From NCBI GenBank assembly GCA_001777665.1, contig MFEQ01000001.1, positions 1 to 35,162 of the forward strand: a stretch of DNA of 35,162 bases, written 5' to 3'. This stretch comes from Candidatus Doudnabacteria bacterium RIFCSPHIGHO2_02_FULL_42_25. GTDB taxonomy: Bacteria > Patescibacteriota > Doudnabacteria > UBA920 > O2-02-FULL-48-8. The translations under genes and the position numbers were made by a program. The notes beneath the pieces are model-generated. The model was given only the letters and a program-made list of their open reading frames with translations. It was not told where the DNA came from and did not search any database. Shown piece by piece: positions 8,598 to 35,162 of this stretch. Every line of letters starts with the position of its first letter. Within the stretch, counting starts at the first letter, position 1.

Positions 8598-9330
8598 AGT
8601 TACCGAGATTCACTTCAATTTTACGATTAAATATTTCACTACCCGTATCCACAGCACAACTAGTGGTGGTGAGTTTGGTGTTACAGCCAAGGGAGCTGAT
8701 ACTGACTATGTCTGGCAACCCCTCATTCGTATCCACAAACGCAGTTGAAACTGCAGCTCCACCCAGAGTTGACAACCTGACAATCAGCCGGCCTTCCCTC
8801 CCAACCGCGACAGCGGCGATCGGAAATGGTACTACAGGGTCACCTGGTGCAATTAGGGCTGACGCCACTGGTGTGTCGTCTAACCGTAAAATCTCAACCC
8901 GGATCGACACAGGCCCAGTATTCAGAACATCGACATTGTTATAATAAGTCACCCCAGCTCCATCTAAAAGATCGATATCGCCATTCGGGTCATCTGGATT
9001 ATATAACAAAATATCAATCGGCTGGACTGTAATATCAAAGGTTCCACCACCAAAGGATTTACAATATGTAACTTCAGAAACAGCGTTATAGGCCACGAGC
9101 GGCGGATTGGTTTTGCATGCCGTTACCGCTGAAATATCATCGCGTTTAAGAGTCCACAACCCTTGTTCTATGCCGGCTTCTGCCGCCGCATAACCTGGTT
9201 CCGTCAGCAGAGTGGCTCTGGAACTACGAATCTCCCGCACGACAAATGTCGAAACCGCGGCTGCGACTAAACTCATCGCGGATAAAATCAGAATCGATAA
9301 TAATAATGTGACACCTCGTTGGTTGGTCAT
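8596..9330 (-). CDS. PilX-like pilus assembly/minor pilin protein
   Basis: N-terminus MTNQRGVTLLLSILILSAMSLVAAAVSTFVVREIRSSR; last gene of the pilus operon. Confidence 0.7.
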   Translation of the reverse strand: MTNQRGVTLLLSILILSAMSLVAAAVSTFVVREIRSSRATLLTEPGYAAAEAGIEQGLWTLKRDDISAVTACKTNPPLVAYNAVSEVTYCKSFGGGTFDITVQPIDILLYNPDDPNGDIDLLDGAGVTYYNNVDVLNTGPVSIRVEILRLDDTPVASALIAPGDPVVPFPIAAVAVGREGRLIVRLSTLGGAAVSTAFVDTNEGLPDIVSISSLGCNTKLTTTSCAVDTGSEIFNRKIEVNLGN

Positions 9331-9433
9331 CCCGTTTAGAAATAATGATTAGTTAGATAAATAGATAAAATAAAATTTAAGTTCGAACTGGTACACTGTG
9401 AGACGGTCGCCGATGTAAAATTTCTAACGGGAC

Positions 9434-10054
9434 TCATGGTCGTGATGGATAATATCTCTCAGTAAAGGTACTCTGGAGGTTAACTTTCGCTTGGTCTTCG
9501 GTGCTCCCACCCGTATTACTGGATACTTCCAAAATGATGGTCACTGAAGGTTGGATGTTTGATACGTATGGTGGCAGAAAAGGATCGACTTCTGGAAGAA
9601 CTCGAAACTCAAGATTGGTAATTTTAACTGCGTCACTCGTCAAATCCGCCGGTGGTGACCCATTTTTTTCCATAGTAATCTTACAAACTCCTAAAACACA
9701 CGCGAGCGTAAATGACTCTGAATCTCCGGCCTGGTTGATAATATGCAACTGATCGGGATTGTCAGCCGTGCCGCCATATCCAGGATGAGCATAATCGATT
9801 CTTCCGCTGCGGACTTCTTTGGCCAGAAAGTCCATGATATACCTGGCGTTCTGGACCACAGCGCGTTCGGCTCTCGTTTTCCGGTCTAATCTGATGGCAG
9901 AAATATAAATCGCCACAATGGAGCTGATTACAAAAGCGAAGATCCCTGCGGAAACGACTGCCTCAATTAATGTGAACCCCGTTAGAGATTTATTATTTTT
10001 TTTACCGTTAGATAATTTAACTATCTCTAACGGGGTGAAGCCCTTCTGTCTCAT
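9434..10054 (-). CDS. Minor pilin (PilW/PilJ-like) with prepilin motif
   Basis: LTGFTLIEAVVSAGIFAFVISSIVAIYIS; preceded by a second, partial prepilin-like motif KGFTPLEI. Confidence 0.8.
   Translation of the reverse strand: MRQKGFTPLEIVKLSNGKKNNKSLTGFTLIEAVVSAGIFAFVISSIVAIYISAIRLDRKTRAERAVVQNARYIMDFLAKEVRSGRIDYAHPGYGGTADNPDQLHIINQAGDSESFTLACVLGVCKITMEKNGSPPADLTSDAVKITNLEFRVLPEVDPFLPPYVSNIQPSVTIILEVSSNTGGSTEDQAKVNLQSTFTERYYPSRP
9974..10036. repeat. CCCCGTTAGAGAT palindromic repeat inside the minor pilin gene
   Basis: AACCCCGTTAGAGATTTATT...CCGTTAGATAATTTAACTATCTCTAACGGGGTGAA. Confidence 0.8.
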
Positions 10055-25903: not shown

Positions 25904-26275
25904 CTAATCGTGTAGGACTTTTTTGACTTTTTCTAGAACGATTTTTGTATCGACATTGGATTTGACCAGATAGTCATCCACTTGGCTAGCGAATGCTTGG
26001 ATTTTCGAATCTGGCTGTTCGACTGAACTTAGCATAATTACCCGGGCTTTCTTGTCTGGCTCTTCTTGATTTCGCAGTTGCTTCAACATCTCTAATCCAT
26101 CTAATTTGGGCATCATAATATCGAGAATGATCAAATCCGGATGATGTCCGCGGACTGCATCCAATCCTTCCAGGCCGTCCTTGGCTGTAACCACATTGTA
26201 ACCAGCTTTGGTTAACACGTGTCGAAGAATATCTGTAAACATGGTGTCATCCTCGACAACTAGTATAGTTTTCAT
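25904..26275 (-). CDS. Response regulator receiver-domain protein
   Basis: KTILVVEDDTMF, LIILDIMMPKLDGLEML, VIMLSSVEQPD, DDYLVKSNV; canonical residues present. Confidence 0.93.
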   Translation of the reverse strand: MKTILVVEDDTMFTDILRHVLTKAGYNVVTAKDGLEGLDAVRGHHPDLIILDIMMPKLDGLEMLKQLRNQEEPDKKARVIMLSSVEQPDSKIQAFASQVDDYLVKSNVDTKIVLEKVKKVLHD

Positions 26276-26532
26276 CCCGTTAGAGACAGGAAACGCTTGA
26301 ACCGATTTTTTATATATCTTTTACCCATTCCTGTTTTTAAATATTTTTCTCTTACCCGAGCGTCTAGTTCGTTTAAACAAGACTCGTAGTAAATTAAGAT
26401 AAATGGACCCCGGCCTTTTGTTGAATAAACCCTTCTTGAATTATGCTCGCTCAAGCGTTTCCGTAAATCATTCGTTGATCCAGAATATAAGCGCTTATCT
26501 TTCTGACTTTGTAATATATAAACGTAGAACAT
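26272..26532 (-). CDS. GIY-YIG nuclease family protein (free-standing)
   Basis: MFYVYILQSQKDKRLYSGSTNDLRKRLSEHNSRRVYSTKGRGPFILIYYE. Confidence 0.9.
   Translation of the reverse strand: MFYVYILQSQKDKRLYSGSTNDLRKRLSEHNSRRVYSTKGRGPFILIYYESCLNELDARVREKYLKTGMGKRYIKNRFKRFLSLTG
26277..26287. repeat. Inverted repeat arm flanking the GIY-YIG gene (left)
   Basis: CCGTTAGAGAC. Confidence 0.85.
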
Positions 26533-26536
26533 CTAT

Positions 26537-26547
26537 GTCTCTAACGG
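26537..26547. repeat. Inverted repeat arm flanking the GIY-YIG gene (right)
   Basis: GTCTCTAACGG, perfect reverse complement of 26277..26287. Confidence 0.85.
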
Positions 26548-26658
26548 AATTCATAAATATAATATACTCCTCGCTTGAAAAAAGTGCAAAAGACCAGAAA
26601 CATCAGGCCTTGAATTCTATTGTGGTCTAGTGTAATATCTGGATTCAGGAGGAAACCA

Positions 26659-33010: not shown

Positions 33011-33827
33011 ATTGCGATAACTGATAGTTTCGCATTCCCACGTAGTGTGCGGCGTTACCGCGCTACGCGAGTCCGAAGGTTCATTTGAGATTTTAGTAAT
33101 CGAATTCGATCTAGACCAAATTTAGAATGATGCTTTCCCATTTCTACAAGCTTAGCTATTTTGCAAAACAACTCAAAGCTTTTCTTCTTTGAATAACTCT
33201 GCAATTGATGCTTGCGAAAAAACGGGATAATTACATCTAGGATTGCTCTATGTGTGTTTACTGTATAACGGTAACATTGACTATGATTTTCTCGACTTTC
33301 TGGTTGAAAGTATACTGCTCCGCAACCTAAAGAGTTACGAACTTTATCGAGCATAGCCTTATCTTGTTCCTGAACTTTTATAAAAAAGTTCAAAGTAACA
33401 CGTCCGCCACCGCCCTTATTTAAGGGTGACTTTATTAGAACATAGAAACATCCTTCTCCATCTGTTAGACCGACGATATAATCATCAGAAACCATCGGTT
33501 TTGTCCTTCGGCTTGATTTTAAACCAAGCTTACTATGACGCAGCTGACTTCTCAAAACTTTTAAATTTTCCATAAGTTTATGAGATCTCCCTGGGTAACC
33601 ATTAATACTATTCCAAACATCATGATCGAGATTTTTTGTGATACTTCCCTATTACACACCGCACTAAAAATAGGTCGTATCTCTCTTTTTATGATCACGC
33701 TGCCCTTTGCTACTAGGATCCTTCAGTCTATCCCTCGCGGAAGTAGACCTACCCGTTCGCTACACTCGAAAATCGAGCGAGTGGACTTAAACCACTTAGC
33801 TTTAATAGCCGCCAGGCGCCTTTAATT
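33011..33827 (-). other. Intron in 16S rRNA between E. coli-equivalent A1398 and C1399
   Basis: Exons TTTTGTACACA | CCGCCCGTCACACC; intron begins AATTAAAGGCGCC and ends CGCAAT; internal GCGGTGTGTA complements the ligated exon TACACACCGC. Confidence 0.85.
33055..33573 (-). CDS. LAGLIDADG homing endonuclease encoded in the 16S intron
   Basis: 172 aa; YIVGLTDGEGCFYVLI. Confidence 0.92.
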   Translation of the reverse strand: MENLKVLRSQLRHSKLGLKSSRRTKPMVSDDYIVGLTDGEGCFYVLIKSPLNKGGGGRVTLNFFIKVQEQDKAMLDKVRNSLGCGAVYFQPESRENHSQCYRYTVNTHRAILDVIIPFFRKHQLQSYSKKKSFELFCKIAKLVEMGKHHSKFGLDRIRLLKSQMNLRTRVAR

Positions 33828-34246
33828 TGTGTACAAAACCCGAGAACGTATTCACCGTAGCGAGGCTGATCTACGGTTACTAGCGATTCCAGCTTCATGA
33901 GGGCGAGTTGCAGCCCTCAATCCGAACTGAGGGTAGTTTTTGAGAGGATTTGCTCCACCTTACGGTATTGCGTCCCTTTGTTCCTACCCATTGTAGCACG
34001 TGTGTCGCCCAGGGTGTAAAAACCACGCTGATTTGACGTCATCCCCGCCTTCCTCCAGCTTAAACGCCGGCAGTCTGTTATGAAAATCAACATAACATGG
34101 GGGTTGCGCTCGTTCTCCCACTTAAGGGAACATCTCACGACACGAGCTGACGACAACCGTGCAGCACCTGTGTATCACTCTCGAAGATCACACGTTTCCG
34201 TGCGCTTGAAGATACATGTCAAACCCTGGTAAGGTTCCTCGCTTAT

Positions 34247-34300
<54 letters not shown>

Positions 34301-34736
34301 ATGTTTTAGCCTTGCGGCCGTACTACACAGGCGGGATATTTAACGCGTTAGCTACGGCTCGCACGAGGGTCGATACTCGCGCATGCCTAATATCCATCGT
34401 TTACAGCGTGGACTACTGGGGTATCTAATCCCATTCGCTCCCCACGCTTTCGTCCTAGCAGTGTCAGGTGGCACCCAGAGACCTGCCTTCGCTTTCGGTG
34501 TTCCGAACGATATCAACGCATTTCACTACTACACCGTTCGTTCCAGTCTCCTCTTTGCCCCTCTAGTTTTGCAGTATTTTGAGCAAACTCAGAAGTTGAG
34601 CTTCTGGCTTTTACCCAAAACTTTCAAAACCACCTATCGGTACGCTTTACGCCCAATGATTCCGGATAACGCTTGAGGTCTCTGTATTACCGCTGCTGCT
34701 GGCACAGAGTTAGCAACCTCTTATCTATGGGTACCA

Positions 34737-35036
34737 TCAGTCCCGCACCTTTTTGGCATCGTTGATGCTAGATTCTAATCTTTTCTTAAGTTCATGAAAC
34801 CCTTTGCCATGATGCTTTAACTGTCGCTCTCGACGACCAGCATCTACTGGCGATAGATAAGCTTCAAAATAGATTAACCTCCAGGGACCAAATTTACTTG
34901 TCCACTGACTTAATCCATGATTATGCTGATCTACTCTTGTCGTTACTTTATCAGTAACTCCAATGTAGAACTTACGAGCAGATTTCTCGTCTAGATTTAA
35001 AAGTATATAAACGTAATACATACGCGTATTATACAT
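34737..35036 (-). CDS. GIY-YIG nuclease family protein encoded within the 16S h17/V3 hairpin
   Basis: MYYVYILLNLDEKSARKFYIGVTDKVTTRVDQHNHGLSQWTSKFGPWRLIYFEAYLSPVDAGRRERQLK; C-terminal AKKVRD* is read from the rRNA stem. Confidence 0.88.
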   Translation of the reverse strand: MYNTRMYYVYILLNLDEKSARKFYIGVTDKVTTRVDQHNHGLSQWTSKFGPWRLIYFEAYLSPVDAGRRERQLKHHGKGFHELKKRLESSINDAKKVRD

Positions 35037-35162
35037 TCAAACCCCAACCAGACCAAAAAGGTGCGGGATTTTTCCCCATCAAAAGCACTTTACAACCCGA
35101 AGGCCGTCTTCGTGCACGCGGCGTCGCTGGATCAGGCTTTCGCCCATTGTCCAAAATTCCAA

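What the first reader, a model, noticed from the sequence alone, without database searches (positions are those of the whole stretch)
26270..26550. GIY-YIG gene bounded by perfect 11-bp inverted repeats that match a dispersed palindrome
CCGTTAGAGAC (26277-26287) and GTCTCTAACGG (26537-26547) bracket a 261-bp GIY-YIG gene almost exactly; the left arm lies inside its 3' coding end (SLTG*). The same CCGTTAGAGA core is the arm of the palindrome inside the minor pilin gene at 9974-10036. The arrangement looks like an autonomous unit (IR-nuclease-IR) and a non-autonomous unit (IR-IR), comparable in logic to RAYT/REP but with a GIY-YIG nuclease.
Basis: partly seen in the sequence, partly recalled or inferred. 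Interest (0 to 1): 0.72.

Follow-up and report, generated by a model that had tools for sequence, protein, structure and literature searches.

The report
Tiny transposon-like element carrying a nuclease
A 275-base mobile unit made only of two mirror-image ends and one small GIY-YIG nuclease gene has spread through ultra-small CPR bacteria, landing mostly on gene start codons and sometimes inside the removable leader of pilin proteins, and no known class of bacterial transposon is built this way.

Summary
The window unit (26275-26549) has inverted repeats YCCCGTTAGAG...CTCTAACGGGR around one GIY-YIG gene, and a perfect 4-bp target duplication (TTCA) on both sides. Across 213 distinct related units, 112 have an exact duplication of at least 4 bp, 94 of them TNNA. 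The unselected terminal base is complementary in all 112. Same-genus genomes show two clean empty sites and two stubs. Related nucleases have different inverted repeats, and repeat type follows nuclease phylogeny (Mantel r 0.57, 0 of 2000 shuffles). Short units with the same ends are non-autonomous copies. The 61% landing exactly on a downstream start codon (1.1% expected) leave genes intact. Pilin insertions at GFTLIE keep frame in 5 of 6 cases, so prepilin peptidase should remove the insert with the leader. Best reading: a terminal-repeat mobile element whose only protein is a GIY-YIG nuclease. Mobility is well supported. That the nuclease catalyses movement is inferred, without biochemical data. 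The RAYT/REP analogy holds only loosely.

The parts
26275..26549 (-). Full-size mobile unit (275 bp): terminal inverted repeats around one GIY-YIG gene
   Evidence: same architecture in 116 of 117 units from the genome scan
26275..26288 (+). Terminal inverted repeat, arm 1 (TCCCGTTAGAGACA)
26536..26549 (-). Terminal inverted repeat, arm 2 (TTCCGTTAGAGACA on the minus strand; 1 mismatch to arm 1)
26271..26274 (.). 4-bp target-site duplication TTCA, copy 1 (TGAA of the response-regulator start region)
26550..26553 (.). 4-bp target-site duplication TTCA, copy 2
26272..26532 (-). GIY-YIG nuclease gene (86 aa, P0001); its last codons SLTG are read from the repeat and its stop TGA is completed by the target duplication
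   Evidence: catalytic Y3, Y5, Y16, G18, R26, H30, E62 conserved in at least 95% of relatives
25904..26275 (-). Response regulator gene next to the unit; its ATG is formed by the unit's terminal base plus the duplicated TGAA
9977..10035 (.). Short non-autonomous unit (59 bp) inside the prepilin leader codons; unit + TSD = 63 bp, frame kept
9973..9976 (.). Target duplication TGAA (TTCA of GGC-TTC-AC on the coding strand), copy 1
10036..10039 (.). Target duplication TGAA, copy 2
9434..10054 (-). Minor pilin gene carrying the short unit: MRQKGFT-PLEIVKLSNGKKNNKSLT-GFTLIEA; joining the flanks gives MRQKGFTLIEAVVSAGIF
   Evidence: N_methyl motif at residues 26-46
9330..9432 (-). Third unit (103 bp, CCCGTTAGAAAT subfamily), slightly decayed, between two pilin-operon genes; right end at the next gene's ATG, left arm supplies the TAG stop of the pilin gene; flanks GTCA/CTCA match 3 of 4

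Best explanation
This is a minimal autonomous mobile element: terminal inverted repeats YCCCGTTAGAG...CTCTAACGGGR around a single small GIY-YIG nuclease gene. SHOWN by sequence: the unit moves as a block, inserts at TNNA with a 4-bp duplication, carries essentially only this gene, shares its ends with short gene-less copies, and nuclease and repeat types are inherited together. INFERRED: the nuclease, probably as a dimer, recognises the inverted repeats and cuts TNNA targets with a 4-nt stagger; joining, by the nuclease or host repair, followed by gap filling gives the duplication; gene-less copies are moved in trans. INFERRED: survivors sit where insertion does no harm. At ATG start codons the unit's terminal A plus duplicated TGAA rebuilds the downstream start and the TGA ends the nuclease gene. 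At GGN-TTY-AC codons of prepilins an in-frame insert only lengthens the leader, which prepilin peptidase should cut away at the restored G|FTLIE.
For: TSD: 4 bp or more in 35 of 56 units vs 9.8% with mispaired flanks; 112 of 213 units with at least 4 bp, 94 of 112 TNNA, terminal base complementary 112 of 112; non-ATGAA start-codon units share at least 5 bp in 11 of 24 vs 3.0% control. Cargo: 116 of 117 full-size units have GIY-YIG homology; no facing pair of ends 500-3000 bp apart among the places listed. Empty sites: single TCCA and single TTCA in same-genus G220; stubs keeping part of the unit in G118 and G131. Co-inheritance: repeat score at least 12 in 24 of 53 protein-selected loci vs 0.76% null; Mantel r 0.57, and 0.48 without this repeat family, 0 of 2000 shuffles each. 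Targeting: 63 of 103 right ends exactly at a start codon of an ORF of 60 aa or more vs 1.1% at random positions. Pilin insertions in four further genomes. Active-site residues conserved.
Against: No biochemistry, and GIY-YIG enzymes are hydrolytic nucleases with no established strand-transfer activity (general knowledge), so another enzyme or host repair must be involved at some step, or the nuclease is a passenger. G069 holds 25 repeat copies but only one distant relative of the nuclease. Only about half of units keep an exact duplication. Loci of the genome scan were selected by their ends and size, so they cannot by themselves prove the association; the protein-selected set can.
Confidence: 0.7

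Rival explanations
1. The units are MITEs moved by an ordinary (DDE) transposase; the GIY-YIG gene is a passenger caught in one of them.
For: 4-bp duplications and terminal inverted repeats are typical of DDE elements; GIY-YIG enzymes have no known transposase activity; G069 has many units without a close nuclease.
Against: IS4/IS5-type DDE domain found in 1 of 16 element-bearing genomes and rve in 3 of 16; no larger element with these ends among listed places; the only gene in 116 of 117 units is the nuclease; nuclease and repeat types are inherited together, including in other repeat families.
Confidence: 0.2
2. A free-standing homing endonuclease gene: it cuts one allele-specific site and spreads by recombination; the repeats are the cut site or a by-product.
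For: GIY-YIG is a homing nuclease fold; insertion at the starts of the same genes in different species (read as topA, tsaD, pyrG from the translated starts) could be homing.
Against: Insertion sites are unrelated apart from TNNA; target duplications and gene-less copies are not expected from homing by homologous repair; no intron or intein.
Confidence: 0.06
3. The repeats are ordinary terminators or regulatory hairpins, not ends of a mobile element.
For: Short units can form hairpins and often lie between genes; an infA-upstream copy is shared by three related genomes.
Against: Arms of full-size units are about 250 bp apart around a gene; duplications, empty sites and in-frame insertions in coding sequence.
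Confidence: 0.02

Closest known systems
REP/RAYT and REPIN elements
   Same: Small palindromic non-autonomous units plus a single-copy enzyme gene flanked by the same palindrome
   Different: RAYTs are HUH Y1 tyrosine transposases and REP insertion is not known for target duplications (own knowledge); here GIY-YIG, true TIRs, 4-bp TNNA duplication; Y1 domain in only 6 of 16 genomes
MITEs and their parent DDE insertion sequences
   Same: Terminal inverted repeats, short target duplications, gene-less deletion derivatives
   Different: No DDE gene found between these ends; the 275-bp autonomous unit is far smaller than any IS known to me
GIY-YIG homing endonucleases and CPR rRNA insertion sequences
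   Same: Same nuclease fold; PMC11270868 reports GIY-YIG genes in CPR rRNA genes in insertions unlike group I or II introns
   Different: Not intron-borne here; multiple unrelated targets, TIRs and duplications
Rickettsia palindromic elements (RPE)
   Same: Palindromic units inserted in frame into protein genes (reviewed in PMC10969869)
   Different: RPEs have no described autonomous partner as far as I know; here one is present and insertion falls in a leader that is cut off
Penelope-like retroelements
   Same: GIY-YIG endonuclease used by a mobile element (own knowledge)
   Different: They need a reverse transcriptase; none here
UPF0213 proteins (PDB 1zg2, 1ywl)
   Same: Closest solved structures by sequence, E 3.6e-5 and 0.0055
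   Different: Not described there as parts of mobile elements

Membership tests
TIR DNA transposon (general) | Terminal inverted repeats | tested here: met
TIR DNA transposon (general) | Short target-site duplication of fixed length | tested here: met
   4 bp, TNNA; repeats of 3 or 5 bp in some full-size units
TIR DNA transposon (general) | Empty sites in relatives | tested here: met
   two clean empty sites
TIR DNA transposon (general) | DDE transposase encoded between the ends | tested here: not met
   only GIY-YIG found; DDE_Tnp_1 in 1 of 16 and rve in 3 of 16 genomes
REP/RAYT | Y1 (HUH) transposase flanked by REPs | tested here: not met
   the flanked gene is PF01541, not PF01797
REP/RAYT | No target duplication | tested here: not met
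   4-bp duplication present
GIY-YIG nuclease superfamily | GIY-YIG domain with catalytic Tyr, Arg, Glu | tested here: met
   PF01541 6.3e-15; Y3, Y5, Y16, G18, R26, E62 conserved
GIY-YIG nuclease superfamily | DNA cleavage activity | not testable with these tools
   no assay
Homing endonuclease gene | Homologous insertion site in all copies, no target duplication | tested here: not met
   unrelated TNNA sites with duplication
Rickettsia palindromic elements | Palindromic unit inserted in frame in coding genes | tested here: inconclusive
   true for 5 of 6 pilin insertions, but most full-size units are at gene starts; sequence relation to RPEs not tested

The most novel reading that the evidence does not exclude
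A new class of bacterial transposon in which a minimal, roughly 86-aa GIY-YIG nuclease is the only transposition protein: it recognises its own inverted repeats and inserts at TNNA, with many subfamilies of nuclease and cognate repeat. Its insertions in prepilin genes are erased at the protein level by prepilin peptidase.
Probability: 0.6. Interest if true: 0.93.

Novelty: categorically new. Interest (0 to 1): 0.86.

Why it matters
Transposition proteins known to me are DDE, HUH, serine, tyrosine or Cas1 enzymes, or reverse-transcriptase systems. An element of under 300 bp run by a lone GIY-YIG nuclease would add a class and perhaps the smallest autonomous mobile element. It would also help explain why streamlined CPR genomes carry so many small GIY-YIG genes and where the unexplained GIY-YIG insertions in their rRNA genes come from, and it makes in-frame palindromic elements testable with a named enzyme and target. 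Insertion at a leader-peptide cleavage site is a way to sit inside a protein gene without intron or intein. The caveat is that only open-access papers could be searched, and none of my searches found a prior description.

Tried and rejected
Terminator or regulatory hairpin: rejected by duplications and empty sites. RAYT/REP membership: rejected by the gene and the duplication. Homing intron for the window unit: rejected. Viral contigs: no short unit with these ends in the one scan made. First null model for the inverted repeats was contaminated by units sharing the same repeat; redone with different families only. Empty-site comparisons with the more distant G183, G254 and G374, and for L249 at 560, were uninterpretable. 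Duplications were not tested systematically for the other repeat families. No structure prediction was run, because the fold is already clear from Pfam.

Full report
OBSERVATION. The two 11-bp arms, the GIY-YIG ORF and the dispersed palindrome are all present at the stated places. Four matches with at most one mismatch were found where 0.30 are expected, and no shuffle reached four. Looked at closely, the unit is 26275-26549: TTCA | TCCCGTTAGAGACA ... TGTCTCTAACGGAA | TTCA. The palindrome in the pilin gene is TGAA | CCCCGTTAGAGATT ... TATCTCTAACGGGG | TGAA at 9977-10035. A third unit of the CCCGTTAGAAAT kind lies at 9330-9432 between two pilin-operon genes. The host genome is small (849 kb) with eight GIY-YIG loci, and the records that share the element are mostly CPR.

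THE UNIT IS WIDESPREAD AND PAIRED. The 11-mer CCCGTTAGAGA occurs in 7 of 14 family genomes and 67 of 380 genomes drawn evenly from the phylum, mostly as facing pairs. Pair lengths fall into short (26-199 bp), about 275 bp, and 370-420 bp (in the cases read, a full unit with another unit nested in it); among the places listed no facing pair is 500-3000 bp apart (my reading, whose list is truncated for high-copy genomes). Of the 80 titles shown, 52 name CPR lineages, 17 name other groups (Omnitrophota, Planctomycetota, Elusimicrobia, Syntrophaceae and others) and 11 are unnamed (my count). Non-CPR records are metagenome bins and may include misbinned contigs. Of 117 units, 116 show GIY-YIG homology.

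IT MOVES. Among 56 mostly short units an exact duplication of at least 4 bp is found in 35 (34 of them exactly 4), against 9.8% with mispaired flanks. Among 213 distinct units, 112 have at least 4 bp; 94 of these are TNNA (TGAA, TTCA, TTTA, TAAA, TCCA and others), and the profile read on both strands is T at the first and A at the fourth place in 91%. The base outside the core repeat is complementary on the two sides in 106 of 109 full-size units and 112 of 112 units with duplications, though it was not part of any search. Where the start codon region is not ATGAA, the left flank still repeats the unit's own right flank by at least 5 bp in 11 of 24 cases, versus 3.0% for other units. Joined flanks matched continuously in same-genus genomes: G220 has a single TCCA where G358 has a unit, and a single TTCA at another site. 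G118 keeps TTTCA-TCCCGTTA-ATTCA where G131 has a unit, and G131 keeps TTTTATCCCGTTAGAAATTAGAG where G118 has one.

THE NUCLEASE BELONGS TO THE UNIT. In loci chosen only by protein similarity to the window nuclease or to the GIY-YIG family, an inverted repeat with score at least 12 brackets the gene in 24 of 53 cases, against 0.76% for left and right sides taken from different families. Other nuclease clades have other repeats: CCCTGTTAAATA (L085, L087; close variants in L084, L086), CCCCGTAGAGAA (L079, L277), CCGGGTAGTGAAA (L284, L285), TAATACAAC (L274, L276), CCCCGTTAGAAACCC (L077, L081). Protein identity over the first 72 residues, leaving out the part encoded by the repeat, correlates with repeat similarity (r 0.57; 0.48 without the CGTTAGA family; 0 of 2000 shuffles each). 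This shows inheritance as one block and fits recognition of its own ends, but does not prove it. Some GIY-YIG clades, often next to tRNA genes, show no such repeat. Residues matching the GIY-YIG active site are at least 95% conserved, so the protein is under selection. In the Nomurabacteria group the ORF reads the right repeat in another frame (GASYL*), so the repeat is kept as DNA, not for the SLTG peptide.

WHERE IT LANDS. In 63 of 103 full-size units with enough flank, the end behind the nuclease gene falls exactly on the start codon of an ORF of 60 aa or more; the rate at random positions is 1.1%, and at the other end on the opposite strand 1 of 103. The terminal A of the unit plus the duplicated TGAA rebuilds ATGAA, while TGA closes the nuclease gene, so both reading frames survive. 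Whether this is target choice or survival of harmless insertions cannot be separated; TNNA is the sequence preference, and the rest is probably selection.

PILIN INSERTIONS. The window pilin reads MRQKGFT-PLEIVKLSNGKKNNKSLT-GFTLIEAVVSAGIF; removing the unit and one duplication gives MRQKGFTLIEAVVSAGIF. Full nuclease units sit in frame at the same codons in an Omnitrophota MAG (L144) and a Yanofskybacterium (L096). In a Ratteibacteria operon (L115) four neighbouring pilin genes carry a unit or what look like its remnants at this site, and L219 has a short one. Unit plus duplication is a multiple of three in 5 of 6 cases measured from the unit lengths; in the sixth the pilin is read from the nuclease's own ATG. 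Prepilin peptidase cuts after G of GFTLIE (established knowledge), so the mature pilin should be unchanged. That processing is inferred.

MECHANISM. Shown: insertion as a block, TNNA target, 4-bp duplication, gene-less copies, an internal-deletion copy that keeps a nuclease remnant (own genome C4:85699), and stubs after loss. Inferred: the nuclease cuts at the ends and/or target with a 4-nt stagger; joining is by the nuclease or by host repair; short copies are moved in trans. The main rival is a DDE transposase acting on MITEs with the nuclease as passenger. It is weakened by finding no IS4/IS5-type DDE gene in 15 of 16 and no rve in 13 of 16 bearing genomes, by the absence of any larger element with these ends, and by co-inheritance. 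It is not excluded, since other DDE families were not searched and G069 has many copies but only a distant nuclease.

NOVELTY. Eight literature searches found no description of a TIR/TSD element with a GIY-YIG gene; the library lacks preprints and most subscription papers. PMC11270868 reports GIY-YIG genes in CPR rRNA insertions unlike both intron types. The window's own example (34737-35036 in the 16S gene) has 16-bp inverted repeats and may be a cousin. By architecture this is not a member of any transposon class known to me; by behaviour it works like a TIR transposon with MITEs.

Noticed in passing
window 34737-35036 (-), repeats at 34741-34756 and 35053-35068: A second, distant GIY-YIG gene lies inside the 16S rRNA gene (SSU model 33780-35162) bracketed by perfect 16-bp inverted repeats TCCCGCACCTTTTTGG; the repeats could close the insert as a stem so that splicing is not needed.
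   Followed up: partly
L008, L009, L011, L013 (own genome), L088, L092, L093: Other GIY-YIG genes sit directly beside tRNA genes; in several, part of the tRNA gene appears duplicated on the far side of the nuclease gene, suggesting a tRNA-targeting relative.
   Followed up: partly
window 33503-33575 (-): Match to a group II intron D1-D4 RNA model just downstream of the 16S gene.
   Followed up: no
L036 (G013), L035 (G000 C4), L234 (G040): Units of the CCCGTTAGAA kind are nested near the same place at the 3' end of GIY-YIG units in three genomes, in one with TSD CCTG: possible hot spot for element-into-element insertion.
   Followed up: no
L020 (G011), L032 (G013), L005 (G000 C4:25419): A short unit upstream of a gene read as infA is shared by three related genomes, so at least some units are old and may have been kept for a function.
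   Followed up: partly
L009, L011, L088: REP-like G+C-rich repeats (CCCGCCCGC..CAAGCCTG, GCCTGCC..GGCAGGC) surround tRNA-linked GIY-YIG genes.
   Followed up: no
L012 (own genome C2): GIY-YIG gene flanked by direct repeats CACGCAATCCTGATG.CAATCAGGATCTC on both sides.
   Followed up: no
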